Position numbers and translations under genes: made by a program. From Mycolicibacterium goodii (GTDB lineage Bacteria; Actinomycetota; Actinomycetes; Mycobacteriales; Mycobacteriaceae), in contig NZ_CP012150.1 in NCBI RefSeq assembly GCF_001187505.1, forward strand, positions 372,001 to 436,000: 64,000 nt of DNA. The letters run 5' to 3'. Positions 16,570 through 29,354 of this stretch are shown here, one piece after another. How positions within the stretch are numbered: the first letter of the stretch is position 1; each line of letters begins with the position of its first letter. The notes beneath the pieces were generated by a model. The model had not been told where the DNA came from. It saw nothing but the letters and a program-made list of their open reading frames with translations, and did not search any database.

Positions 16570-18435
16570 CTACGGTGCGGGCGGTTCGGACGTCTCCGTC
16601 GCGGGTTGGGCGGGTGCGGGTTCCGACGTGGGTTCCGGCTGGGGCTCAGCGGTAACCGACGGCTCGGGCTCAGCGGTAACCGACGGCTCGGGCTCCGTGG
16701 TGGGCTCCGGCTGCTGAGTCGGATCAGGCTGGGGCTCGGCAGTGGGTGACGGTGTCGGCTCGGGCTCTGTGGTGGGCGCAGGCGTCGACGCCGGAGGGCC
16801 CGGGAACACGAACGTCGGAATCGGCAGCTGCGGCAGCACCGGCCATTGCGGCACGGGTGCGGCGGCAGGCGGCGGGCCGGGTTGCGGCGCGGGCGCCGCC
16901 GCTCGTGGCGCAGGCCGCGCAGGTGCGTTGGGCGCCGGCTGCCGGGCGACCTGGCCGCTCTGCACCAGGCGCGGCGCGGCCGCCGGGCGGGGTGCCGACC
17001 GCGCAGGTGCCGCCGGCTCCTGTACCACCACGGTGCGGGTCGGGGGTGCCGGCAGTGACTGCGCCAGAGGGGATTCCGCGGGTGCGGTCCGCGGTGTCAG
17101 CGGCGAGTCGACCGCCGCGGCGTCCAGACGGTCGGCGCGCACCGAGTAGATGAGGCCGACGGTTCCGACGACGGCCAGGAACAGCGCGGCGTAGAGCACC
17201 ACCCCGCCGCGCCGGTACCACCGGCGCGTGGGCTCCGGGTCGGTCGCGGGAGGCTCGGCGAAGACCAGGTCCGGTCGCGCCGCGCTCGCCGTGACGGCTT
17301 CTGCGCCGAGCTCGGCATCAACCTCGTCGCCTCGATCGCCGACCGCCGACCAGGCCAGTGGCGGCACCCACGTCGGTCCGGCGGTCGTTGTCGCGAAAGC
17401 TCCTGCGCTGGACGGCGATTGGGCAGCGGGCGGGGCGACGCGTCGGGTCACGGTCTGGTCTTCGCCGCGGTGCGCCAGCAGCGCCGCCCCGATCGCCGCG
17501 ATCACCTGCGACTGCACCACGGTGGTCACCGGCATCCGGAATTCTTCGGAAAGCCGTTGTGTCACAACGGGTATGCGCGCACCGCCACCGACAGTCACCA
17601 GCGCCGTGAGCTGGGCCGGGTGCACACCGCAGCGACGCAACAGGTCGTGTAGCGCATCGATCACCCCGCCGAGCGGTACTGCGACAACGGCTTCCACGTC
17701 GGCGCGGGTGAGCCGGCTGGTGCCCGCGGCGGGTCCGGTGAGCCCGGTGGCGCCTTGATAGCTCAGCCGTTCCTTCGCCAGCCGACACTCCTCACGCAGC
17801 GCCGTCAGCGCGGACACCGCCGAGGTGCCCGCCGGTTCGGCGTCCTGATCGGCCAGCACCCGCCGCAGCAGTTCCTGGTCGATCAGGGCGCCGGAGAAGT
17901 CCTCGTGGCGCACAGAACCCAGCGGCGCGAAGCCGGCCGCAGCGTCGGCCAGCGTGAGGGTGGTGCCGGTCGCGCCGAAGTCACACAGGGCGACGATGCC
18001 GCGGGCAGGCAGCCCGGGATGGGTCTGGATCGCGGTCAGCGCGGCCACCGCATCGGACACCACGCGCACGCCGGGTAGCGCGGTACGGACCGCGTCATAT
18101 GCGGCCGGTTGCCAGTGCGCGGGCACGGCCACCACCTGGTTCTCGGGGAGTGCGTCGGGTGCGGCCAGTCGGGTCATCGCTCGTACGGCCGCGGCCAGCA
18201 GCCGCTCGGCGCGGTGCGCGGATCCGTCGGCCGCGATCAGCGGCACCGGGTCACCGACCCGGGCGACGAATTCGGAGATGGTCAGACCGTCGCAGGCACG
18301 TCCGTCCGGTGGCGCACCGACCTCGGGTCCGCGATGTGGGTACAACGTCAGGGCCGCACGCCGGATGACCGGCGCCTGGTCGGTGACCGCCACCAGGTTC
18401 GTCGTCCCGACGGACAACCCCAGGCAATCACGCAT
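16570..18435 (-). CDS. Membrane-anchored Hsp70-like protein with Pro-rich C-terminus
   Basis: 621 residues. Residues ~1-330 form an Hsp70/actin-like domain (GLSVGTTNLVAV, ALCDFGATGTTLTLADA, VGGGARIPVVTQRL). The first loop has Ser where DnaK has the Mg-coordinating Asp, and the GGG of the second loop is altered, so ATP hydrolysis may be weak or lost. The substrate-binding domain is absent; instead there is a linker, one transmembrane helix (VVLYAALFLAVVGTVGLIYSV, ~residue 410) and a ~190-residue Pro/Ala/Glu tail predicted outside. It lies 43 bp upstream of iniC's end on the same strand. A paralogue lies at 25024-26826. Role inferred only: cytoplasmic sensing coupled to the wall. Confidence 0.8.
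   Translation of the reverse strand: MRDCLGLSVGTTNLVAVTDQAPVIRRAALTLYPHRGPEVGAPPDGRACDGLTISEFVARVGDPVPLIAADGSAHRAERLLAAAVRAMTRLAAPDALPENQVVAVPAHWQPAAYDAVRTALPGVRVVSDAVAALTAIQTHPGLPARGIVALCDFGATGTTLTLADAAAGFAPLGSVRHEDFSGALIDQELLRRVLADQDAEPAGTSAVSALTALREECRLAKERLSYQGATGLTGPAAGTSRLTRADVEAVVAVPLGGVIDALHDLLRRCGVHPAQLTALVTVGGGARIPVVTQRLSEEFRMPVTTVVQSQVIAAIGAALLAHRGEDQTVTRRVAPPAAQSPSSAGAFATTTAGPTWVPPLAWSAVGDRGDEVDAELGAEAVTASAARPDLVFAEPPATDPEPTRRWYRRGGVVLYAALFLAVVGTVGLIYSVRADRLDAAAVDSPLTPRTAPAESPLAQSLPAPPTRTVVVQEPAAPARSAPRPAAAPRLVQSGQVARQPAPNAPARPAPRAAAPAPQPGPPPAAAPVPQWPVLPQLPIPTFVFPGPPASTPAPTTEPEPTPSPTAEPQPDPTQQPEPTTEPEPSVTAEPEPSVTAEPQPEPTSEPAPAQPATETSEPPAP
16644..16691 (-). repeat. Perfect 24-bp tandem duplication in the Hsp70-like tail
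   Basis: Two exact 24-bp copies (16644-16667 and 16668-16691) encode EPEPSVTA repeats in the Pro/Glu-rich C-terminal tail. Exact identity suggests recent slippage; copy number may vary between strains. Confidence 0.85.
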
Positions 18436-18478: not shown

Positions 18479-19984
18479 TCAGGCCGGACCCGCTCGGTGA
18501 CCCGCGGCATACTCGGCCACCAGCGCTTCGGCGCTGCGTACCGCGGCCCGGCAGGCCCGGGTGGTGAACGGGTCGTTGAGCGGGTGCTCGGCACGCCGCC
18601 GCCACCGCTGTGCGGCGGCGAACGCGGCCCGCGGCCCGTCGTAGGGCGCTTCAGGGGTCAGGCCGAGCCGGCTCGCGGCATCGGTGCCCGAGCCGCCGAT
18701 GATGCGACGCAGCGAGGCCATCTCGTCCTCGTTGAGGGTGGTCGGCCGGGACCGCAACTGACTCAACAGGCGCAGTTCCTCGAACGCATGGGTGTCGGCG
18801 AGCAGCGGTTCGATGTCGGCGAGGATGTACGGCGTCGCATAGATGGGGTTGCGCTGCACCAGCTGCCGCAGCGACAGCAGCGCGGTGTGCGCCTTGAGCA
18901 ACTCCGACCGCTGCGCGAACTGCTGGTCGATGACGTCGCGCAACGCGATCAGCCCGCTGCGCTCCAGCAGTTCGTCGGCCAGCGCCACCGAATCGGACAC
19001 CCCGGCGCGCAGGACCGCGATCGAGATCCGGATGCCGAACATGCCGAACCGGTCCAGCAGCGCCGCCCGGGTCGCGGCATCCACCGGCAGGGCGCTGTCC
19101 TCGCGCACGAACCGGTCCACCGACAGCATGGCCTTGGCCAGCTCGGTCGGATCGACCGCGGCGAGCTTCTCCAGTGCGACGAACTCGCTCTGCCGCAGCG
19201 TCCGGGCGGTCACGGCCAGCAGGCCCGACACCGGGACGACGGCCTGGCAGATCCCGGTTCTGTCCATCTCGGCGGTGAATCGCTTGGCGACGTCCTTGGC
19301 CGACAACATCGCGTCGATGCGACCCGCGCCGATCTCGTCGGCACGCGATGCGACACCGATGACCCCGAGCGCGCCCGACGACCCGCCGACCAGTTCGCCG
19401 ATCTGCTTGAGCAGCGCGATGTCGGCGGCGTTGAGCGTGCGCAGCAGGAACACGACGGCGTCGACCCGGGGCACGCCGTCCTCGGGCACCAGCAGTCGGT
19501 AGGTGCGTTCGGAGACGTCCTGCGACAGCGACGACGTCCCCGGGGTGTCGATGATCGTGGTGTCGACGAGTTCGACGGCAGGCCACTCCACATCGAGGTC
19601 CACGATCTCGCCGGGGTCGAGGCCGTCGAACCTGAACGTCAGCCCGCGGTCGTGGGGATCGCGCACGATCGGCACGTTGGAACGTCGGCCGCCGCGATGA
19701 TTGGCGGTCACCTTCGGGGTGGGCCCGTGCCGAAACCACGTGACGATCCGGGTGGCCTCGGTGGCGTCGGTCGGTGCGATCTCTTCGCCGAGCAGCGCGT
19801 TGACCAGCGTCGACTTACCGGCTTTGAGGGTGCCGGCCAGCGCGATGCGGATCGGCTGGTTCAGCTGCCACCCGATGCGTTCGAGCTCGTTGTGCACGTC
19901 GGGGCGATGGCGATATGCCGGATCGCCACGATAGGCCTGGACGGTACCGCGCAGGATCGCGCGGACCTGATCCCCCGTGCTCAC
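18479..19984 (-). CDS. iniC: Isoniazid-inducible dynamin-like GTPase IniC
   Basis: 501 residues. GTPase motifs are P-loop GTLKAGKST (residues 51-59), switch Thr region EATRIVTW and IDTPGTSS (G3). The C-terminal half is helical, as expected for bacterial dynamin-like proteins. In M. tuberculosis IniC is the third gene of iniBAC, an operon switched on by cell-wall inhibitors. Here it is not contiguous with iniA: two plus-strand genes lie between (20161-20932), so it needs its own promoter in 19985-20160. It is followed by the Hsp70-like gene on the same strand. Confidence 0.92.
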   Translation of the reverse strand: MSTGDQVRAILRGTVQAYRGDPAYRHRPDVHNELERIGWQLNQPIRIALAGTLKAGKSTLVNALLGEEIAPTDATEATRIVTWFRHGPTPKVTANHRGGRRSNVPIVRDPHDRGLTFRFDGLDPGEIVDLDVEWPAVELVDTTIIDTPGTSSLSQDVSERTYRLLVPEDGVPRVDAVVFLLRTLNAADIALLKQIGELVGGSSGALGVIGVASRADEIGAGRIDAMLSAKDVAKRFTAEMDRTGICQAVVPVSGLLAVTARTLRQSEFVALEKLAAVDPTELAKAMLSVDRFVREDSALPVDAATRAALLDRFGMFGIRISIAVLRAGVSDSVALADELLERSGLIALRDVIDQQFAQRSELLKAHTALLSLRQLVQRNPIYATPYILADIEPLLADTHAFEELRLLSQLRSRPTTLNEDEMASLRRIIGGSGTDAASRLGLTPEAPYDGPRAAFAAAQRWRRRAEHPLNDPFTTRACRAAVRSAEALVAEYAAGHRAGPA

Positions 19985-20934: not shown

Positions 20935-22785
20935 TCAGGCCGGGCTGGGAGCCGGGTCCTGGGCGAGTTTGGTCGCGTGCTCGACGACCTGTTTGAGGAT
21001 GTTCTGCTGCCGCTGCAGTTCCCGGACGCGGGTATTGCGTTCGGTTTCCTCGATTTTCGCGGCCGCGATCGCGGCCTGTAACGATTCGTTGAGCGACCGG
21101 GTGGTCTGGTTGGCGATCTCGCGGTAGTGATCGCGCAGTTGCCGTTGGATGCCCTTGAGCCGGTCGCGGGATTCCTTGCCGACGACGAAAGCCACGTCGT
21201 CGACGAATTTGCGCACATTGGCCTTGGCCTCGTTGCGCACCCGCATCATGCGGTTCTCCATGTCCTCCTTGTAGGCCTTGCGCCCCAACACGAATCCCGC
21301 GCCGAGCGACAACGGGTTGAACATGCCAAGACCGGCGAACGAGGTCAGCATGCCGAACATCAGCACACCGCCGTAGGACCCCCGCATGCCGGTGACCACC
21401 TTGTGGCCGATCTTGATCGGCTTGGCCTCCAGGCGGGCCAGGGAGTTCAGCTCGCCGAAGCCCGCACCCATGTCGCGCGCGTCGATCTGGGGCATCTGCA
21501 CCGCATCCAGACCCGCCTCGGTGAACGTGCGCGCCACCTCGGCGGCCAGTGCCTCGGCGCGTTGGTAGGCCCACACGAAGTTGTCACCGACGGCGGTGGC
21601 GACCGCGTCCTCCAGTTCGGCGCCGATCTCGGCCCAGTGCAATGTGGGATCGCAACTGTCGATGACCTTTTCGGTGTGCGCGGTGATGCTGCGGAACCGG
21701 TGCCGCAGATCGTGGTCGACGTCGGCGGTGAGATCGGCGATGCCGTCGCCGAGCACCTGCTGCCACAACGCGGTCTGCTGCAACGCGTCCTGAGCCTCCT
21801 GCTTGCGCCGCTCCAATTCGGCGGTCAGGCGTTCCCGCTCCCCCGGATCGTTGAACGACGACAGCTCCGATTCCACCGAGAGCATCAGATGCTCTGCCGC
21901 CGAACGGATTTCGGACACGATCTGATCGCGGATGCGGTCATTCTCGCGGGACAGCACACGCTCGGAGAGGAACTTCACGATCGCCGGGAAGTTCGATTCC
22001 TCGTTGAGCTCCTTGTCGTTGAGCCCGATGGCGTGGCTGCGCAGCACCGACGACGCCGGGATCACCGGGACGTTCACCCCGGCTCGTTGCAGGTGCGCGA
22101 TGTTGGCGTCGACGATCTGGCGCCAGTGCGGATACAGGTCCGTCTTGGTCGCGACGATCGCTGCCACCGGACAGATCTCGAGGGCCTGCCGGATGAACTT
22201 CATCTCCGGCTCGGTGAATTCCTGGCTGGTGTCGCTGATCATCAGCATGGCGTCGGCGTCGGGCAGCAGACCCAGTGTGGCCGACAGGTGAGGTTGTCCG
22301 TGACCTCCGACGCCGGGGGTGTCGACGAACGCCAAGCCGCCCTTGAGCAGGGGGCTCGGTGCGGTGACCTCGACGCGCAGCACCTGTCGCCCGCCGGCCT
22401 GGGGCGCGCGCCGCAGATCGTTGGTGACCTCCGATGGCGGGATCTCGATCAGTTCCGGTTCGGCGCCGTCGGGGCGGGCCACCACGAGCCGGGCCGAGGC
22501 CTGTTCGCCGTAACACACCACGGTCGCGAGCACCGTGCTCTCGTCATCGCCGACCCGTGCCACCGGGATGTTGAGCAGCGAGTTGAGCAGGTGGCTCTTG
22601 CCCTGCTTGAGCTGCCCGGCGATGACCACGCGGATCTGCGGGTCACTGATCCTTTCCTTCGCGGCACGCAGCCGTTGCACCAGGTCACCGCGATCCTTGG
22701 CGGCGGCGATGGTGCTGAGGTGGTCGATGAGCTCGACGATCACCTTCACCGGTCTTACCTTGCCCGGATCACTGGGCTGCGTCAT
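20935..22785 (-). CDS. iniA: Isoniazid-inducible dynamin-like GTPase IniA
   Basis: 616 residues. GTPase motifs: P-loop GQLKQGKS (57-64), VDTPGVGGHG (G3), ATKTDLYP (G4). A helical neck/trunk follows and a hydrophobic hairpin (GGVLMFGMLTSFAGLGMF, then LGAGFVLGRKAYKED) that would insert in the membrane. IniA of mycobacteria is a bacterial dynamin-like protein shown to cause membrane fission, and it contributes to isoniazid tolerance. GGAGGG precedes ATG 22785. It lies 87 bp after iniB, with a large hairpin in between (22823-22866), and likely shares the iniB promoter. Confidence 0.95.
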   Translation of the reverse strand: MTQPSDPGKVRPVKVIVELIDHLSTIAAAKDRGDLVQRLRAAKERISDPQIRVVIAGQLKQGKSHLLNSLLNIPVARVGDDESTVLATVVCYGEQASARLVVARPDGAEPELIEIPPSEVTNDLRRAPQAGGRQVLRVEVTAPSPLLKGGLAFVDTPGVGGHGQPHLSATLGLLPDADAMLMISDTSQEFTEPEMKFIRQALEICPVAAIVATKTDLYPHWRQIVDANIAHLQRAGVNVPVIPASSVLRSHAIGLNDKELNEESNFPAIVKFLSERVLSRENDRIRDQIVSEIRSAAEHLMLSVESELSSFNDPGERERLTAELERRKQEAQDALQQTALWQQVLGDGIADLTADVDHDLRHRFRSITAHTEKVIDSCDPTLHWAEIGAELEDAVATAVGDNFVWAYQRAEALAAEVARTFTEAGLDAVQMPQIDARDMGAGFGELNSLARLEAKPIKIGHKVVTGMRGSYGGVLMFGMLTSFAGLGMFNPLSLGAGFVLGRKAYKEDMENRMMRVRNEAKANVRKFVDDVAFVVGKESRDRLKGIQRQLRDHYREIANQTTRSLNESLQAAIAAAKIEETERNTRVRELQRQQNILKQVVEHATKLAQDPAPSPA

Positions 22786-22872: not shown

Positions 22873-23964
22873 TCAGAACGCGTCGAGGTCGAGGCTCGGC
22901 GCGGCGACACCGGTGTCGATGTCGGTGCTGCCGTAGCTGTTGCCCGATGCCAGCGCGGTGTCGGTCTCGTTGCCGGAACCGAGCGCGGTCTCGTTGCCCG
23001 ACGCGATCGCGGTCTGGTTGCCCGAACCGATGCTCGACTCGTAGGTCGACGAGTTGTCCGTGTAGCTGGTGTGGGTGTCGTTCTGCACCGAGGTGTTCAC
23101 CGAGTTGTCCACGGTGTTGTCCTGGGTGTTGTCACTGCCGTAGTCGCCGTCGATCGAGGTCTGGTCGCCGCCGACGTACTGCGAGCTGGTGTCGGTCAGG
23201 ATGATCGACCCGCCGTTGCCCCCGTCGCCGCCGGACGCGCCGCCGCTGCCGATGCCGATCAGGCTGTCGCCGCCGCTGGCACCGCCGCCGTGGCCGCCGC
23301 TCATGTCGACGTCGCTGATGACCGGTCCGTCGTTGCCGGAGATCAGGTCACCGCCCGCGGTCTGCGACTTGTCCTCGATCTCGTTGTCCTCGCCCACCGC
23401 GACGTTGGACCCGGCGCCGGCGAGGATGTCGCCGTTGTTGGTGGTGTTGCCGTCCCCCAGGACCGCGCCGTCACCGCTGACGATGTCGCCGCCGTTGTCC
23501 CCGTCGACCACCACGCCGCCGTTGGCGGCGGTGTTCGTGGTCTTGTCGCCGAGGGTGATGTCGCCGAAGCCCAGGTTGAACGCGCCCTGCTGGGCGTTGG
23601 CACCCGCGTCCTGGTTGGGGCTCATGATCGGGGTGTTGTTGTGGCTGGCCAGGTCGGTGTCGTTGTGGCTGGCCACTTCCGGGGCGAACTGGGTCTGCGG
23701 CGAGAACGGCGAGGCGATCGGCGCCGCGAACTGAGCGGGGATGTTGTGGTGGTCGGCGACCGCCCGCTGCAGGCCCACCACCGGGTTGCCACCGCCGAGC
23801 AGCACACCGGCAGGCGCCGCGGTGGCCGCGACCGCGTGCAGCTGGGCCGCCGTGACGTTGGGCAGGCCCGCGTCGCGCAGGCTGCCGTCCGGGTCGGCGA
23901 TGAACGCCGCGGCCGAGGCGGGGCTGCGGAACAGGTCGAGGATGAAGTCGATCAGAGTGGTCAT
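22873..23964 (-). CDS. iniB: Isoniazid-inducible protein IniB (Gly/Asn/Asp-rich)
   Basis: 363 residues. A ~60-residue conserved N-terminal domain (TLIDFILDLFRSPASAAAF, DAGLPNVTAAQL) is followed by ~290 residues of low complexity rich in Gly, Asn, Asp, Ser and Thr (for example SGNETALGSGNET), resembling wall-associated glycine-rich proteins. It is the first gene of the ini operon, which is induced by inhibitors of the cell wall. Its function is not settled; an association with the envelope is inferred. The promoter region upstream holds three TAGGG repeats. A second protein with the same N-terminal domain is coded at 24236-24784. Confidence 0.93.
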   Translation of the reverse strand: MTTLIDFILDLFRSPASAAAFIADPDGSLRDAGLPNVTAAQLHAVAATAAPAGVLLGGGNPVVGLQRAVADHHNIPAQFAAPIASPFSPQTQFAPEVASHNDTDLASHNNTPIMSPNQDAGANAQQGAFNLGFGDITLGDKTTNTAANGGVVVDGDNGGDIVSGDGAVLGDGNTTNNGDILAGAGSNVAVGEDNEIEDKSQTAGGDLISGNDGPVISDVDMSGGHGGGASGGDSLIGIGSGGASGGDGGNGGSIILTDTSSQYVGGDQTSIDGDYGSDNTQDNTVDNSVNTSVQNDTHTSYTDNSSTYESSIGSGNQTAIASGNETALGSGNETDTALASGNSYGSTDIDTGVAAPSLDLDAF

Positions 23965-24133
23965 TGCTCCAACCTTTCAGGTGTTTCTGGGAGGTCCTCG
24001 TGAGGTTCTTGTGAGGTTTCCCGCCGGGCTCTCCGGCGATCTGGACACCACGTTATGGGCCCGCGCAGACGCCGAAAACGGGGCGCGATCCCCTCGTGCA
24101 CGAGGCCCACCCCGGGGTACGTCCGGCGCACCC

Positions 24134-24160
24134 ATTAGGGGATTAGGGGGACACTAGGGA
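24134..24160. promoter_or_regulatory. Triple TAGGG repeat upstream of iniB (candidate IniR site)
   Basis: Three direct copies, ATTAGGGGA (24134-24142), TTAGGGGGA (24143-24151) and ACTAGGGA (24153-24160), lie 170-196 bp before the iniB start. The same motif occurs three times at 24912-24952. CATAAC at 24052-24057 (minus strand) is a candidate iniB -10 element. Binding by the LuxR-type activator IniR is inferred from placement. Confidence 0.55.
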
Positions 24161-24187
24161 GTGTCGTCAGCAAATCGCCCAAAACAG

Positions 24188-24222
24188 AAAAGACGCATGA
24201 CCAGGCAGGTCATGCGTCTTTT
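24188..24222 (-). terminator. Intrinsic terminator after the Rv0340-like gene
   Basis: A perfect 15-bp inverted repeat (AAAAGACGCATGACC at 24188-24202 and its complement at 24208-24222) with a 5-nt loop. On the minus strand the stem ends in a T-rich stretch. It sits 14 bp after the stop at 24236 and separates that gene from the iniB promoter, so the two minus-strand IniB-type genes are independent units. Confidence 0.85.
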
Positions 24223-24235
24223 CAGTGAAATTGGA

Positions 24236-24784
24236 TCAGTCGAAGATGTCGAGCCCGGAGGCATCGTCCCCATAGTTTCCGGGATCCCCCGTATCGGAAT
24301 GCTCGGGGATGACGGGCTGCCCCCAATCGGTACCGAACACCGGGTCGTCGACCGGCGCCGGATCGGTGATCGGAGCGTCGACCGGAGCCGGTCCAGGACC
24401 CGATGCGAGGTCGTCCACCCCGAAAACGCCGGGGACGTCGGCCCCGGCCGGGCCGGGATCGTCCGGCACGCGGATCACCGACTCGTTCGTGTCGCCGCCG
24501 GTGTCGAACGGCATATGGTCGCCGAACGCGTCGAACGCCGCGGTGGCCGCGCCGGAGGCCCATACGTTGCCCGCCGGTTCGGCGCCGACGGCGTCGAGAC
24601 TTCCTGCGGTCGCGCCCATCGACAGGGATTCCGACACCACGGGAATCAGATTGTCGACATCGGCGCTGGTCACGTCGGGCAGATCGGCGTCGGCGATCGC
24701 CTGCGCCGGATCGGCCGCGTACCGGGCCGCGGCCTCGGGGTCACGCACCAGCGACATGACGAAGTCGAGCAGCGTATTGGCCAT
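24236..24784 (-). CDS. IniB N-terminal domain protein (Rv0340-like)
   Basis: 182 residues. The first ~60 residues are clearly related to IniB (TLLDFVMSLVRDPEAAARYA, DADLPDVTSADVDNLIPVV against the iniB protein). The rest is acidic, Pro/Asp/Gly-rich and of low complexity. ATG 24784 is preceded by GAGAGG and begins at the conserved domain. M. tuberculosis has an equivalent gene, Rv0340, directly before iniB. Function unknown; its terminator and its own TAGGGGA triplet suggest independent but parallel regulation with iniB. Confidence 0.85.
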   Translation of the reverse strand: MANTLLDFVMSLVRDPEAAARYAADPAQAIADADLPDVTSADVDNLIPVVSESLSMGATAGSLDAVGAEPAGNVWASGAATAAFDAFGDHMPFDTGGDTNESVIRVPDDPGPAGADVPGVFGVDDLASGPGPAPVDAPITDPAPVDDPVFGTDWGQPVIPEHSDTGDPGNYGDDASGLDIFD

Positions 24785-24911
24785 GACACCTCTCTTCGCT
24801 GGTCGGTTCCGGTTGGCCCGATGTCCGCGCCGGTCTGTTGGTATTGCTGACGATGCTATGCAGCAGAATCTCGGCGGGAATCGGTGCCGACCCCACCTCC
24901 CGATGACGGGC

Positions 24912-24952
24912 ATTAGGGGACGCGCCGTTAGGGGATCGACGCCACTAGGGGA
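24912..24952. promoter_or_regulatory. Triple TAGGGGA repeat in divergent ini promoter
   Basis: Three direct copies: ATTAGGGGA (24912-24920), GTTAGGGGA (24927-24935) and ACTAGGGGA (24944-24952), spaced 15 and 17 bp apart. They lie between the Rv0340-like gene (minus) and the Hsp70-like/iniR genes (plus). TAAGGT at 24983-24988 is a candidate -10 for the plus side. The arrangement could control both directions. Confidence 0.6.
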
Positions 24953-25023
24953 TCAATCGCGGGTGTCCCGGGTCCGAACCGCTAAGGTGAGCAACGGCCC
25001 AGACAACACAGGAGTGACGCCTG

Positions 25024-26826
25024 ATGACCGACTCACTGGGGTTGTCGATCGGGATAACCAATCTGGTGGCAGCCCGCGAAGGCCGTGCACCGGTGGTCCG
25101 CCGATCGATCCTCAACCTGTACCGCGACCGTGCCCCGGAGGTCGGCGAACTCGACGGTGACGGCCTTGCCGTGACCGGCTTCGTCGAGCGCACCGGGGAC
25201 CCGGTGCCGATCGTGGCCGCCGACGGCTCGCAGCATCGGGGCGAGTCGGCGCTTGCCGAGGCGCTCGACGCGATGGCCCGCACCGTCGGTGGCGGCACCC
25301 CGGTCGCGATCGCGACGCCGGCCTACTGGGGTCCCGCGGCGTTGGGTGCACTGCGCGGGGCGCTGCGGATCAAACCCGCGTTCGCCCCCGACGGTATTCC
25401 CGCCGCACTGGTTCCCGATTCCATGGCGGCCCTGGCCGCCCTGCGCGCCGATTCCGGTCTGCCCGGCGACGGGGTCGTGGTGTTGTGCGATTTCGGCGGC
25501 AGCGGCACGAGCGTGACACTTGCCGACGCCGCCGCTGACTACGCTGCCCTGGGCCAGACGCTGCGCCACCCCGAGTTCTCGGGTGACCAGATCGACCAGG
25601 CCCTGCTCGACCACGTCCTCACCGGTATCGCCGCGGCCCAGGACACCGATCCGGCGGGCACCGCCGCAGTCGGTTCGTTGGCCAGGTTGCGCAGCGACTG
25701 CCGAAATGCCAAGGAGGCGTTGTCCGCTGACACCGTCACGGCGATCCCGGTGGAACTGCCCGGCGTCAACTCCGATGTGCGGATCACCCGCCCCGAACTC
25801 GAGCAGCTGATATCGGGGCCACTCGACGGACTCCTCAATGCGGTCGAGGACACGTTGCAGCGCAACAACATCGCACTGTCCAGCGTGACGGCCGTCGCGA
25901 CGGTCGGCGGTGGGGCAGCGATTCCCTTTGTGACACAACGCCTTTCCGAGCGACTGCGGGCGCCCGTGGTGACCTCGCCGCAGCCGCAGCTGGTCGCGGC
26001 GACCGGGGCGGCACTGGTCGCCGAGCGCGCCGTCGACGCAGGCGCACCGACCGGCCTGGCTCCCGAGGTGGCCGCCGCGGACGCGCCGACCGGGCTGGGA
26101 CCCGCCGCCGCGATGGGCGCGGCAGGCGCCGCGGCAGCCAACGGCCCGGAATCCTCGACGTTCCGTGCGCTGGCCTGGTCCGAGGACGACGCGCCGCCCA
26201 ACGAACCGGTGCCCTATGCCGGGCCCGATTACGGCTACGAGTCCCCGACCGGGGCGACGGCCGCCCGCCCTCCGGTGGAGTTCAGCCACGAGGAGGAGAT
26301 GTACGACGCCGGGCCGGCCCCGCTGGCCTGGTACAAGCGGCCGCCGATCCTGTTCGGCGCGGCCGCGGCCGCGGCCCTGTTGGCGGCGGGCGGTCTTGCC
26401 GTCACGCTCACCAGCACGTCAAGCGACTCGACGCCGGTCACCGAGACCAGCACCACCTACTCGATGGGTCCGTCACCGCAGGGCCCCCCGCCCGAGCCGG
26501 TCACCACCGTGACGGTCGGCCCGGACGGGTTGCAGACCACCACGGTGGTGGTGCCGCCGCCACCGCCGCCGGAGTCCACGACGACGACGCAGCCGACGTC
26601 GACCACGAGTCCGACGACCACCACGACCACGACCACCACGACAACGACCGCCACGACAACGACCACCACCACGACCACTCCGACGACGACGCGGACCACC
26701 ACCACGGCGCCGACGACCACCACCCCGCCGACGACGACGCAACCACCGACGACGACCCAGCCGCCGGTCACGACAACGGTCGAAATTCCGGATGTGCCTG
26801 ACGTTCCCGACGACGGCGGCGCCTGA
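25024..26826 (+). CDS. Membrane-anchored Hsp70-like protein with poly-Thr tail
   Basis: 600 residues, paralogous to the protein at 16570-18435. Residues ~1-340 have the Hsp70/actin fold (GLSIGITNLVAAREG, VLCDFGGSGTSVTLADA, VGGGAAIPFVTQRLSERL). Ser replaces the DnaK Asp in loop 1, suggesting non-standard ATP use. A transmembrane helix follows (ILFGAAAAAALLAAGGLAVTL, ~residue 440), then a Pro/Thr tail with long Thr runs, expected outside and possibly O-glycosylated. The peptide-binding domain is missing. It ends 14 bp before iniR, so it is probably co-transcribed with the activator and may feed it a signal; that link is inferred. Confidence 0.82.
   Translation: MTDSLGLSIGITNLVAAREGRAPVVRRSILNLYRDRAPEVGELDGDGLAVTGFVERTGDPVPIVAADGSQHRGESALAEALDAMARTVGGGTPVAIATPAYWGPAALGALRGALRIKPAFAPDGIPAALVPDSMAALAALRADSGLPGDGVVVLCDFGGSGTSVTLADAAADYAALGQTLRHPEFSGDQIDQALLDHVLTGIAAAQDTDPAGTAAVGSLARLRSDCRNAKEALSADTVTAIPVELPGVNSDVRITRPELEQLISGPLDGLLNAVEDTLQRNNIALSSVTAVATVGGGAAIPFVTQRLSERLRAPVVTSPQPQLVAATGAALVAERAVDAGAPTGLAPEVAAADAPTGLGPAAAMGAAGAAAANGPESSTFRALAWSEDDAPPNEPVPYAGPDYGYESPTGATAARPPVEFSHEEEMYDAGPAPLAWYKRPPILFGAAAAAALLAAGGLAVTLTSTSSDSTPVTETSTTYSMGPSPQGPPPEPVTTVTVGPDGLQTTTVVVPPPPPPESTTTTQPTSTTSPTTTTTTTTTTTTATTTTTTTTTPTTTRTTTTAPTTTTPPTTTQPPTTTQPPVTTTVEIPDVPDVPDDGGA
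26579..26774 (+). repeat. ACN trinucleotide low-complexity tract (poly-Thr coding)
   Basis: Nearly uninterrupted ACC/ACG/ACA codons encode runs of up to 12 Thr broken by Pro, Ala, Ser, Arg and Gln. Mixed synonymous codons argue that selection keeps the Thr composition, not merely DNA slippage. Confidence 0.8.
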
Positions 26827-26840
26827 CCGGGCGGATCGTC

Positions 26841-29354
26841 ATGTCGAACCCGGCGCCGGAACGCGTGGTGGACCTGCCGCGGGCTGTCGAGGAGGTGCTC
26901 GCCGGGGCGGCGACCCAGGCCCCGAAGTTGTTGGTGTCCGGCGGGATCGGGACGGGAAAGAGCACCGTGCTCGCGGCGGTGCGGGCGAGGGTGCGCGACG
27001 CCGGGCATACCGTGCTCACCCGCCCGCCCAGGCGCGAGGACGATCCGGCGGCGGTGTTCGTCATCGACGATGCGCACCTTCTCGCCGACGTCGAGATCGA
27101 TTGCCTGACAGAGCGTTCCACTGATCCGTCGGCGTCGGTGGTGGTCGCCGCCGAGCCGCTGGCGCACCGACCCGCCCTGCGGGCACTGACGACCGCGCTG
27201 GAGCGGGAGAACCCGGTGGTGGCGCTCGGGCCGATGTCATCGTCGGACGTCGGACGCGTTCTGGCGGCCTCCCTTGGCTCGCCGCCGCCCGCGGACACGG
27301 TCCGCACGGTGCGAGCGGTCACCGGCGGGCTGCCTTTCCTGGTGCGGGCAGTGGTCGCCTCGGCGGCCGAACCCGCCGAGGCCGCCCGCTACGCGCTGAT
27401 CGAACGGTTGCGTCACCTCGACGAACAGACCCGCGACACGCTGTTGATCACGTCGCTGAGCCTGGATCTCGGGCCCGACGACGTGGCGGGCGCGTTGCGC
27501 ATCGGCGGTGGCGAGGCCTCGGCGCTGGTCGACCGTGCCCGCGCGAGCGGTCTGGTCGAACCCGCCCACGACAAGAGGTTCCTGCGTCTGGTGCACACGT
27601 GCGTCGCGCAGATCGCGGGCACGGCCCGGCACCACGACATCGAGGTCGCGCTGCTGCGCTCGCAGCTCGAAATGGCCACGCTGTCACCGGAACTCGCGAT
27701 GCGACTGGCCGAGCATGGTGTCCGTGACGATCGACTCGCCGAGGCGCTGACCGAGCACGCCGTGCAGGTGCGGGGCCAACCGGCCCGCGCGGCGCGGTTG
27801 TATCGCGCCGCGGCCCGTGCGGGCTCGGCCGCGCTCAACGCGCGGCTGGCCGATGCGCTGGCGTTGTCGGGCGACTGTGCCACGGCGGGCCGCATGACCG
27901 ACGACCTGCTCAGCTCCGAGGATCCGGCCGAGCGCGCGGCCGCGGTCCGGATCGCCGCGAGCATCGCGCTGCACGACGGCAGTGCCGCGCAGGCCGCCGA
28001 CCTGTTCCGCTGGCTGGGCCCGTACCCGGATGCGGCGGTCGGTTCGGCGGGCACGGTCGTGCTGCTCGCCGCGGGCGACGCCGCTGCCGCCCGCGCCGCG
28101 TTGCACACCGAACCGGCAGGCCCACCGACGTCGGCGGCCCGGACGGCGCGCAGCCTGGCCGAAGGCCTGGTGTCGTCGCTCGACCAACCGTTCGCGGTCA
28201 CCGTCGCGCGCCTCGGCCAGGCCGTCACCGCCGAGCCCTACCCCGACGGCGTCGCGCCGGACAGCCCCGCGGCGCTGGTGACGTTGGCGGCGCTGCACGG
28301 CGGCGACTCGGTCCGTGCCCGCAGCGTGATCGGGCGCGCGGTGCGCGGGGGCCCGCCGAACGGCGACCCCGGCGCGGCACCGTCGTCGACTCCGTTTTCT
28401 GCCGCCCGGCACCGGTTGCTGCTGGGCTGGGTCAAGATGCTCGACGGTCAGCTGGGCGCCGCGGGCGCCGACGTGTCGGCCGTCGAGTCCGGCCCGCCGT
28501 TGCACCGCCGCGACGCGTTGTGGGCCGCGGCGCTGCGCACCGCGGTCGCACGGCGCAGCGGGGACAGCGGCGCCATCCAGCGGCACTGGTTCACGGCGAT
28601 GGAGGTGCTCGCCGAGTACTCCGTCGACCTCTTCTCTCTGCTCCCGCTGGGTGAGTTGTGGGTCGCGGCGGCGCGCATGCGCCAGATCGACCGTCTCGAG
28701 CATCCGCTGTCGGAGGCGTTCGGGCTGCTCGATGCGCTGGGGAAACCGGTGCTGTGGTCCATGCCGCTGCACTGGGCCGGGGTGCACGCCGGGATCCTCG
28801 CCAACTCGCCGAGCGCGGTCGCGCCCCACGGTCAGGCGCTCACCGCGGCGGCCGGTCGCAGCCCGTTCGCCCATGCGCTGGCCGGTGCGGGCCGGACCTG
28901 GCTGCGGGTGCTGGCCAACCACGTCGATGTCGACGAGGTGGCGGCGGCGGCCCGCGGGTTGGCACAGTTCGGGCTGAGCTGGGACGCCACCCGGCTGGCG
29001 AGCCAGGCCGCGCTGCAGACCTCCGACGCCCGGGTCTCTCAGGCCATGCTGCAGTTGGCCCGCGATCTCAAGCAGTCCGGCGCGGCCGACGACGCGACGG
29101 CATCCGAGGCGACGCCCGCACCCCAGGCCGCCCCGGCCGGCGCCCCCGCGGGCTCCGCGCGCCTGTCCGACCGCGAGCGTGAGGTGGCCGAGTTGTTGCT
29201 GCTCGGCTTGCCGTACCGCGACATCGGCAACCAATTGTTCATTTCGGCAAAGACCGTCGAGCACCACGTGGCCCGGATCCGCAGGAGGCTGGGTGCCGAA
29301 TCGCGATCCGAGATGTTGTCGATGCTGCGGGCGATGCTGTCGGCGCCGAACTGA
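26841..29354 (+). CDS. iniR: AAA-LuxR transcriptional activator IniR
   Basis: 837 residues. An N-terminal STAND/AAA ATPase (Walker A GGIGTGKST at 34-42; Walker B VFVIDDAHL) is followed by a long helical-repeat sensor region and a C-terminal LuxR helix-turn-helix (LSDREREVAELLLLGLPYRD, then FISAKTVEHHVARIRRRLG). Length, domain order and position match Rv0339c, named IniR, the activator of iniBAC that responds to trehalose. ATG 26841 follows the Hsp70-like stop by 14 bp. The TAGGG triplets upstream of iniB and in the divergent promoter are the natural candidate targets. Confidence 0.88.
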   Translation: MSNPAPERVVDLPRAVEEVLAGAATQAPKLLVSGGIGTGKSTVLAAVRARVRDAGHTVLTRPPRREDDPAAVFVIDDAHLLADVEIDCLTERSTDPSASVVVAAEPLAHRPALRALTTALERENPVVALGPMSSSDVGRVLAASLGSPPPADTVRTVRAVTGGLPFLVRAVVASAAEPAEAARYALIERLRHLDEQTRDTLLITSLSLDLGPDDVAGALRIGGGEASALVDRARASGLVEPAHDKRFLRLVHTCVAQIAGTARHHDIEVALLRSQLEMATLSPELAMRLAEHGVRDDRLAEALTEHAVQVRGQPARAARLYRAAARAGSAALNARLADALALSGDCATAGRMTDDLLSSEDPAERAAAVRIAASIALHDGSAAQAADLFRWLGPYPDAAVGSAGTVVLLAAGDAAAARAALHTEPAGPPTSAARTARSLAEGLVSSLDQPFAVTVARLGQAVTAEPYPDGVAPDSPAALVTLAALHGGDSVRARSVIGRAVRGGPPNGDPGAAPSSTPFSAARHRLLLGWVKMLDGQLGAAGADVSAVESGPPLHRRDALWAAALRTAVARRSGDSGAIQRHWFTAMEVLAEYSVDLFSLLPLGELWVAAARMRQIDRLEHPLSEAFGLLDALGKPVLWSMPLHWAGVHAGILANSPSAVAPHGQALTAAAGRSPFAHALAGAGRTWLRVLANHVDVDEVAAAARGLAQFGLSWDATRLASQAALQTSDARVSQAMLQLARDLKQSGAADDATASEATPAPQAAPAGAPAGSARLSDREREVAELLLLGLPYRDIGNQLFISAKTVEHHVARIRRRLGAESRSEMLSMLRAMLSAPN

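What the first reader, a model, noticed from the sequence alone, without database searches (positions are those of the whole stretch)
24134..24952. Matching triplets of a TAGGG repeat upstream of two IniB-type genes
Three direct copies of about ATTAGGGGA occur 170-196 bp before iniB, and three more (ATTAGGGGA, GTTAGGGGA, ACTAGGGGA) in the divergent promoter of the Rv0340-like and Hsp70-iniR units. The two sites are ~780 bp apart and I noticed no comparable cluster elsewhere in the window. They look like the operator of IniR, which would then also control its own operon.
Basis: partly seen in the sequence, partly recalled or inferred. Interest (0 to 1): 0.78.

Follow-up and report, generated by a model that had tools for sequence, protein, structure and literature searches.

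The report
IniR operator boxes in mycobacteria
Short TTAGGGG repeats at fixed distances before the genes that mycobacteria switch on when cell-wall drugs hit them look like the docking sites of the regulator IniR, and the same repeats also mark further, unlinked target genes in some relatives.

Summary
The repeats are real and far from chance: the window holds only three close TAGGGG pairs, all at these two sites.

In 70 usable relatives plus the window, the iniB site keeps an 8-bp pair in 66 of 68 and the iniB* site a 15/16-bp pair in 70 of 71. Orientation is 281:1, and the boxes lie at fixed distances from a -10 hexamer.

A strict box pair occurs in 39 of 39 same-genus genomes with IniR and in 1 of 13 without; those 13 also lack IniA and IniB. 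In some species the pair precedes unlinked iniB paralogs (9 of 12 remote sites fetched) or a second Hsp70 gene (12 of 15).

Best explanation: the direct-repeat operator of IniR, a MalT-like STAND activator. Binding to the boxes is inferred; in print, IniR ChIP-seq peaks in front of iniBAC in M. tuberculosis, with no motif in the passages seen.

Self-control of Hsp70-iniR is only partly supported: its promoter has a box 35-37 bp before a -10 in 47 of 52, but EMB/INH did not raise iniR in M. tuberculosis. Operator sequence, spacing rule and wider target set were not found in the papers searched.

The parts
24134..24142 (+). IniR box A1 (ATTAGGGGA), proximal strong box of the iniB promoter; core CCCCTA on the iniB strand, 86 bp upstream of the -10
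   Evidence: position conserved at 85-87 bp in 66 of 66 loci that have the 8-bp pair
24142..24150 (+). IniR box A2 (ATTAGGGGG), 8 bp from A1, 94 bp upstream of the -10
   Evidence: 8-bp pair in 66 of 68 loci
24153..24161 (+). weak outer box A3 (ACTAGGGAG), 11 bp from A2
   Evidence: TAGGG at +11 in 22 of 68 loci
24112..24117 (-). degenerate proximal box (CCCCGG) 62 bp upstream of the iniB -10, the place that box B1 occupies before iniB*
   Evidence: at least 5 of 6 match to CCCCTA at 62 bp in 22 of 66 loci; this species matches only 4 of 6
24050..24055 (-). predicted -10 hexamer TAACGT of the iniB promoter
   Evidence: fixed spacing
24912..24920 (+). IniR box B1 (ATTAGGGGA), 61 bp upstream of the iniB* -10
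   Evidence: 60-62 bp in 70 of 70 loci that have the pair
24927..24935 (+). IniR box B2 (GTTAGGGGA), 15 bp from B1
   Evidence: 15/16-bp pair in 70 of 71 loci
24944..24952 (+). IniR box B3 (ACTAGGGGA), 17 bp from B2; intact in 52 of 52 loci with Hsp70 before iniR, in 0 of 19 without
   Evidence: a 5-of-6 relic at the same place in 12 of 18 loci without Hsp70
24853..24858 (-). predicted -10 hexamer TAGCAT of the iniB* promoter
24983..24988 (+). predicted -10 hexamer TAAGGT of the Hsp70-iniR promoter, 37 bp from box B3
   Evidence: TANNNT at 35-37 bp in 47 of 52 loci
22873..23964 (-). iniB (IniB N-terminal domain NF038175)
20935..22785 (-). iniA (dynamin-like GTPase)
   Evidence: name from position and published synteny
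18479..19984 (-). iniC (dynamin-like GTPase)
   Evidence: name from position and published synteny
16570..18435 (-). Hsp70-like gene 43 bp after iniC, probably the end of the iniBAC operon
   Evidence: co-transcription inferred from the gap
24236..24784 (-). iniB* (Rv0340-family IniB-related protein, NF038176)
   Evidence: 193.9 bits, cut-off 100
25024..26826 (+). Hsp70-like gene, 14 bp before iniR
26841..29354 (+). iniR (NF038181, STAND-type ATPase with C-terminal LuxR/GerE helix-turn-helix 774-828)
   Evidence: 1382 bits, cut-off 750

Best explanation
The TTAGGGGA repeats are the operator of IniR, the MalT-like STAND activator encoded next door. IniR is inferred to assemble, in its ATP- and inducer-bound form, on two to four boxes that all point the same way, and to recruit RNA polymerase to a promoter whose -10 lies at a fixed distance. 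The box positions before the -10 are 61/62, 75-77 and 93/94 bp for iniB* and for second Hsp70 genes (the outermost often degenerate), and 62 (weak), 85/86, 93/94 and in part 105 bp for iniB. Thus one activator switches on iniB-iniA-iniC (with the Hsp70 gene behind iniC here) and iniB* together. The second array also lies just upstream of the Hsp70-iniR promoter, so it may tune the regulator's own operon. Shown by computation: sequence, spacing, conservation, co-occurrence, candidate targets. Shown by others: IniR is needed for iniBAC induction and its ChIP-seq peaks in front of iniBAC. Inferred: direct contact with the boxes, multimer assembly, the promoters themselves (-10 matches), and the sign of the effect on Hsp70-iniR.
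For: (1) TTAGGGG is, de novo, the 7-mer most often repeated in both regions (56 of 68 and 66 of 71 loci); density 8.36 per kb inside and 0.030 per kb outside; orientation 281:1. (2) Distance to a TANNNT -10 is fixed: iniB 85-87 bp in 66 of 66, iniB* 60-62 bp in 70 of 70 loci with the pair. (3) TAGGGGN{1,12}TTAGGGG occurs in 39 of 39 genomes with IniR and 1 of 13 without (Fisher 6e-11), while the same pattern read backwards occurs in 32 of 39 and 11 of 13. The 13 lack IniA and IniB too. (4) Box to gene: 9 of 12 remote 8-bp pairs lie about 140-165 bp before an unlinked iniB paralog, with the -10 at 85 or 86 bp in 9 of 9. Gene to box: 6 of 6 clear unlinked paralogs (E at most 2.1e-14) in 52 genomes carry the pair. 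(5) A second Hsp70 behind iniR has its own pair in 12 of 15 loci, against 0 of 61 loci without that gene. (6) In 200 genomes of the order, IniB-domain genes and long IniR relatives (E below 1e-20) occur in the same 61 and in none of the other 139. CCCCTA was found before 19 of 19 IniB-domain genes outside the genus, 38 copies in 8.0 kb on the gene strand and none in 51.8 kb elsewhere on that strand of the same loci. (7) Published: IniR ChIP-seq peak in front of iniBAC, loss of induction in mutants. (8) NCBIfam calls the protein IniR, 1382 bits against a cut-off of 750.
Against: No binding data at the boxes. Another factor co-inherited with the locus would leave the same trail: iniA and iniB are lost together with iniR, so the 39-against-1 contrast cannot separate them. 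A looser pair, TAGGGGN{2,12}TAGGGG, is not specific: it is in 356 of 396 genomes of the genus, and in 9 of the 12 IniR-less genomes that I find in that table. Boot et al. describe IniR as regulating only iniBAC in M. tuberculosis. Loci are related, so counts are not independent events. Two iniB sites (L033, L074) lack the 8-bp TAGGG pair and one iniB* site (L080) has a single box. Three of 12 remote pairs have no iniB paralog. Outside the genus the distance to a -10 is not fixed and 7 of 18 intergenic regions also hold a box on the other strand. Beyond the genus the IniR relatives score below NCBIfam's cut-off (15 of 200 genomes pass it).
Confidence: 0.87

Rival explanations
1. The boxes are the G-rich tracts of G-quadruplexes that control transcription, as Perrone et al. 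2017 proposed for the upstream sequence of Rv0339c.
For: PMC5515968 Table 2 lists the Rv0339c upstream sequence, which contains two TTAGGGG boxes, as a putative G4. 43 of 68 iniB arrays have four G3 runs with loops of at most 12.
Against: Only 14 of 71 iniB* arrays are G4-capable. What is conserved is TTA before the G run, the strand and near base-exact spacing to a -10, none of which a G4 needs. The Rv0339c sequence is not marked in that table as one chosen for further tests.
Confidence: 0.04
2. The boxes bind another regulator or nucleoid protein that acts on iniBAC (HpoR, Lsr2, InbR, MtrA are named in print), not IniR.
For: Such factors appear in passages and reference lists seen. Co-inheritance with the locus cannot separate IniR from an unknown neighbour.
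Against: HpoR is reported to need CAGACNNNNNNNTGTCTG, a different sequence. Global regulators would be expected to have many sites, yet the strict paired box is nearly private to ini genes. Presence of IniB-domain genes with boxes follows IniR relatives over an order. The motifs of the other factors were not tested here.
Confidence: 0.08
3. The second array serves only iniB*; Hsp70-iniR is not autoregulated.
For: The array keeps its distance to the iniB* -10 in loci with and without Hsp70. In M. tuberculosis iniR transcripts do not rise with EMB or INH. Orientation towards Hsp70-iniR is opposite to that at the other targets. In loci without Hsp70 a -10 at 33-37 bp from box 2 is seen in only 7 of 18.
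Against: A TANNNT -10 lies 35-37 bp from box 3 in 47 of 52 Hsp70 loci. Box 3 is intact in 52 of 52 loci with Hsp70 and 0 of 19 without, though the latter may be a single clade. The TSS used by Perrone et al. puts a box core at about -47 of Rv0339c (hand count).
Confidence: 0.5
4. Chance or sequence bias.
For: Single near-matches are at the expected number.
Against: Clustering, conservation, orientation, geometry and prediction of unlinked targets.
Confidence: 0.005

Closest known systems
MalT boxes of the maltose regulon (E. coli, K. pneumoniae; STAND activator MalT)
   Same: Repeated G-rich boxes read by a STAND ATPase of the same general build as IniR; multimerisation gives cooperative binding in MalT. 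GGGGA occurs in both.
   Different: The published MalT consensus is GGGGA(T/G)GAGG and its box overlaps the -35 (as quoted in PMC7567727). Here the core is TTAGGGG and the proximal strong box lies 61 or 86 bp before the -10 of iniB* or iniB.
iniBAC promoter and IniR (Boot et al. 2017, PMC5760070)
   Same: Same regulator, same operon; ChIP-seq peak directly in front of iniBAC.
   Different: No operator sequence in the sections read; in its main text 'binding site', 'direct repeat' and 'footprint' do not occur and 'motif' only in a reference. That paper gives IniR a single target operon; here iniB*, second Hsp70 genes and unlinked iniB paralogs carry the same boxes.
Putative G-quadruplex of Rv0339c (Perrone et al. 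2017, PMC5515968)
   Same: The listed M. tuberculosis sequence contains two TTAGGGG boxes, 16 bp apart (hand count).
   Different: Read there as a G4; the passages seen do not speak of an operator.
MalT of Actinoplanes (PMC7567727)
   Same: MalT-like LuxR regulator of an actinobacterium with a conserved motif at its targets.
   Different: Palindromic TCATCC-5nt-GGATGA overlapping the -35 region, not same-way repeats.

Membership tests
IniR regulon operator | a bona fide IniR is encoded in the genome | tested here: met
   NF038181 1382 bits, cut-off 750
IniR regulon operator | the site is present where IniR is and absent where it is not | tested here: met
   strict pair 39 of 39 against 1 of 13; confounded by loss of the target genes; a looser pair is not specific
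IniR regulon operator | the site precedes IniR targets | tested here: met
   iniB 66 of 68 pairs, iniB* 70 of 71; iniBAC is the published target
IniR regulon operator | IniR binds the boxes | not testable with these tools
   needs footprint, gel shift or the summits of the published ChIP-seq reads
MalT box | consensus GGGGA(T/G)GAGG (as quoted in PMC7567727) | tested here: not met
   boxes read TTAGGGG then A, G, T or C; only GGGGA is shared, in part of the boxes
MalT box | direct repeats, one orientation | tested here: met
   281 against 1
MalT box | proximal box overlaps the -35 region | tested here: not met
   proximal strong box 60-62 or 85-87 bp before the -10; only the Hsp70-iniR side is near, at 35-37 bp, in the opposite orientation
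MalT-like STAND activator (IniR) | NTPase module plus C-terminal LuxR-type helix-turn-helix | tested here: met
   GerE 774-828, E 4e-14; nSTAND_NTPase5 only below its cut-off; P-loop GGIGTGKST in the consensus; solved-structure hits only to LuxR/NarL-type helix-turn-helix proteins
MalT-like STAND activator (IniR) | inducer- and ATP-dependent multimerisation | not testable with these tools
   Boot et al. report multimers independent of trehalose (section heading, discussion)
G-quadruplex | four runs of at least three G with short loops | tested here: not met
   not as a conserved feature: iniB* arrays 14 of 71; iniB arrays 43 of 68

The most novel reading that the evidence does not exclude
IniR runs a dispersed regulon read by one spacing rule: boxes at about 61, 75 and 93 bp, or about 86 and 94 bp, before the -10. 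Besides iniBAC it holds iniB*, unlinked iniB paralogs and a set of dedicated Hsp70-like proteins. The Hsp70 co-transcribed with iniR is the regulator's own partner in a feedback loop, much as MalY holds MalT at rest; box 3 then exists to couple Hsp70-iniR supply to demand, and it decays where that Hsp70 is lost.
Probability: 0.35. Interest if true: 0.75.

Novelty: new variant of a known kind. Interest (0 to 1): 0.62.

Why it matters
[quoted passage not shown] not read). How its regulator finds it had no sequence-level answer in the papers found. A defined box and spacing rule makes IniR binding directly testable, predicts which bases of the promoter matter, offers another reading of bases that were listed as a G-quadruplex, and points to further target genes (unlinked IniB paralogs, dedicated Hsp70 genes) that a single-operon view of IniR would miss.

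Tried and rejected
Rejected: a chance cluster; G4 as the conserved feature; 'matching triplets' in the strict sense, since the two arrays differ in spacing and the third iniB box is weak.

Corrected on the way: the ungapped profile showed no conserved -10 on the Hsp70-iniR side. Allowing a one-base shift, one search found one in 47 of 52 loci (recounted), so my first reading (array serves iniB* only) was withdrawn. For loci without Hsp70 I first blamed cut stretches for the low count of 7 of 18; with uncut stretches it is still 7 of 18, so that excuse was dropped.

Not reached: M. tuberculosis or M. smegmatis loci by name (the one genome-contig scan returned 80 other records). Alland et al. 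2000, where I recall that a regulatory element upstream of the iniBAC start was reported, is not held and was not seen. Supplementary tables of Boot et al. (S2) could not be read. No structure prediction was run: it would not show DNA binding.

Dropped rows: 10 of the 80 loci have no iniB* in the fetched stretch; 3 more have no usable iniB region (L042, L051, L056); L115 and L117 are cut by contig ends. One search used the 76 of 80 loci with enough sequence after iniR. All rows (iniB, iniB*, second Hsp70, paralogs) were chosen because a -10 lay at the expected distance from a box, so its counts at those distances are not independent of that choice; the unselected counts are those (second Hsp70: -10 at 61/62 bp from the box measured in 9 of 12, at 75/76 bp in 3 of 12). 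One search used the 19 loci outside the genus of the 30 fetched; several of them are near relatives from one genus. The one remote pair in an IniR-less genome (G187) was not fetched. GlgC as the name of the ORF next to two remote pairs is recalled from its sequence, from no call.

Literature: absence of a described IniR operator rests in an open-licence PMC subset only. Seen: PMC5760070 abstract, sections 10, 11, 12, 17 and passages; PMC13413693, PMC7567727, PMC4381067 passages; PMC5515968 one passage and section 6; the rest only as listings.

Full report
WHAT IS THERE. The window is a stretch of a 7.1 Mb single-contig mycobacterial genome; its IniR is 87% identical to that of Mycolicibacterium goodii. 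Reading leftwards on the minus strand: iniB (22873-23964), iniA (20935-22785), iniC (18479-19984) and an Hsp70-like gene (16570-18435). To the right lie iniB* (the Rv0340-like gene, 24236-24784, minus), then, on the plus strand, an Hsp70-like gene (25024-26826) and iniR (26841-29354). The third iniB box is a weaker ACTAGGGAG.

MORE THAN CHANCE. Single near-matches are not enriched (17 against 14.4 expected). Close pairs are: 3 in the window, all at the two sites, against a simulated mean of 0.01 and maximum of 1. Genome-wide, TAGGGGN{5,12}TAGGGG occurs only here (2 matches; 5 for the pattern read backwards); a looser pattern gives 11 matches, 4 here, and 188 for the backward pattern.

CONSERVATION. 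An IniR alignment fetched 80 loci with record titles. In 70 of them iniB* could be placed; with the window that gives 71 iniB*-side regions and 68 iniB-side regions. Without any prior, the 7-mer most often repeated in both sets is TTAGGGG (56 of 68, 66 of 71). Density is 8.36 per kb inside and 0.030 per kb outside, and 281 point one way, 1 the other. The iniB site keeps two boxes 8 bp apart (66 of 68; misses L033, L074). The iniB* site keeps two boxes 15 or 16 bp apart (70 of 71; miss L080). A third box 17 or 18 bp further is present in 52 of 52 loci that have Hsp70 before iniR and in 0 of 19 that lack it; in 12 of 18 of the latter a 5-of-6 relic sits at the same place. The loci without Hsp70 that carry species names are, from recalled taxonomy, slow growers, so this may be one event.

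GEOMETRY. On the iniB* side a TANNNT -10 lies 60-62 bp from the proximal box in 70 of 70 loci with the pair; on the iniB side 85-87 bp in 66 of 66. Measured to the -10, the boxes of different promoters share places: 61/62 and 93/94 bp occur before iniB*, iniB (the first weakly, 22 of 66) and a second Hsp70 gene (the outer one mostly degenerate, 2 of 12 exact); iniB adds 85/86 bp and, in part, 105 bp; iniB* and the second Hsp70 use 75-77 bp (rows chosen by their -10). The 61-to-93 interval is close to three helical turns (inference). On the Hsp70-iniR side a TANNNT lies 35-37 bp from box 3 in 47 of 52 loci. In loci without Hsp70 one lies 33-37 bp from box 2 in only 7 of 18. For M. tuberculosis, the Rv0339c upstream sequence in Table 2 of PMC5515968 holds two TTAGGGG boxes 16 bp apart, the nearer core at about -47 of the TSS used there (hand count).

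THE BOXES PREDICT TARGETS. In 52 same-genus genomes, the strict pair TAGGGGN{1,12}TTAGGGG is in 39 of 39 with IniR and 1 of 13 without (Fisher 6e-11); the backward control pattern is in 32 of 39 and 11 of 13, so base composition does not explain it. A looser pair without the second T is not specific: 356 of 396 genomes of the genus, including 9 of the 12 IniR-less genomes that I find in that table. The 13 IniR-less genomes also lack IniA and any IniB N-terminal domain. Nine remote 8-bp pairs in the IniR-bearing genomes, and three more seen in the partial listing, were fetched. Nine of these 12 (6 of the 9 and 3 of the 3) lie about 140-165 bp before an iniB paralog far from the ini locus, with a -10 at 85 or 86 bp. 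Two lie just past the 3' end of a GlgC-like ORF and one near no iniB. Taken the other way, the six clear unlinked IniB paralogs found by protein search in these 52 genomes (E at most 2.1e-14) all carry the pair; one weak partial hit (G378, E 2.5e-4) does not. Promoter spacers of paralog and own iniB are 51-62% identical in three genomes, against 76-82% between own iniB promoters, so the boxes have outlasted much change, although the paralog promoters are probably old copies of the iniB promoter. Independently, 15 of 76 loci have a second Hsp70 gene behind iniR. In 12 of the 15 it has its own box pair on the matching strand, and in 0 of 61 others. L052, where that gene follows iniR by 46 bp and probably shares its operon, has none; L043 has one box and L058 two, 32 bp apart.

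BEYOND THE GENUS. Of 20 loci from other genera of the family, 18 reach the iniB-Hsp70 interval. In 17 of these the best iniB and iniB* matches fall on one gene, or only iniB matches, divergent from Hsp70-IniR; L114 has two such genes. All 18 have at least one TAGGG box in the right orientation, 13 have two or more, and 8 have an 18-bp spacing; 7 of 18 also have one on the other strand, and the distance to a -10 is not constant there. In 200 genomes of the order, 61 have an IniB N-terminal domain, and these 61 are exactly those with an IniR relative at E below 1e-20. All 200 show some match to the IniR model, as its helix-turn-helix is common (8 of 14 control genomes too), and only 15 genomes, all of this genus, pass its cut-off; in G891 the relative is found in pieces. 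Of the 19 IniB upstream stretches outside the genus that were fetched, 19 have CCCCTA on the gene strand, 4 of them as an exact 8-bp pair (L200, L201, L212, L223): 38 copies in 8.0 kb, 6 on the other strand, none on the gene strand in 51.8 kb elsewhere in those loci. The IniR-IniB-box module is thus probably old.

HOW IT MOST LIKELY WORKS. IniR has a P-loop near its N-terminus and a LuxR/GerE helix-turn-helix at 774-828. That C-terminal block is nearly invariant over 19 aligned sequences, which fits a constant box. MalT, the best-studied relative in kind, multimerises on inducer and ATP and then binds its boxes cooperatively. I infer the same here: a multimer on same-way boxes, fixed in phase to the promoter, recruiting RNA polymerase to iniB and iniB*. 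[quoted passage not shown] Direct contact with the boxes is not shown. For Hsp70-iniR the array is close to the -35 and faces the other way, so the effect could be activation, repression or none. Boot et al. saw no rise of iniR with EMB or INH in M. tuberculosis; the sequence printed by Perrone et al. shows two TTAGGGG boxes and no third one there.

KNOWN OR NEW. Regulator and operon are known. In the open library searched I found no paper that gives the IniR operator; Alland et al. 2000 could not be seen. The boxes are not MalT boxes by sequence or position. New here, as far as those searches go, are the operator sequence, the spacing rule, the wider target set and the link of box 3 to Hsp70.

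Noticed in passing
16570-18435: A second Hsp70-like gene follows iniC by 43 bp, so in this species the iniBAC operon probably ends in an Hsp70; another genome (L163) has the same arrangement, while others carry a second Hsp70 behind iniR with its own boxes.
   Followed up: partly
L056:4329-4413: No iniB was found in this locus, yet an 8-bp box pair lies directly before iniA, perhaps a relic of an iniB deletion.
   Followed up: no
L091:6777-6944: A 55-residue ORF between box 2 and iniR starts, by eye, like the Hsp70 before iniR and then stops: a possible remnant of the lost Hsp70 gene.
   Followed up: partly
L148, L149, L150, L152, L155, L158: Unlinked IniB paralogs in very long ORFs (907-1013 residues), of unknown role.
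   Followed up: no
L153:6034 and L156:7083: An 8-bp TAGGGG pair just past the 3' end of a GlgC-like ORF in two genomes (G197, G390); chance or another target.
   Followed up: no
L206 genome (G816) and G894: These genomes hold two IniB-domain genes, each near its own IniR relative, i.e. two copies of the module.
   Followed up: no
24188-24222: A strong inverted repeat (AAAAGACGCATGACC...GGTCATGCGTCTTTT) between the iniB* stop and the iniB promoter, probably a terminator of iniB* (read by eye).
   Followed up: no
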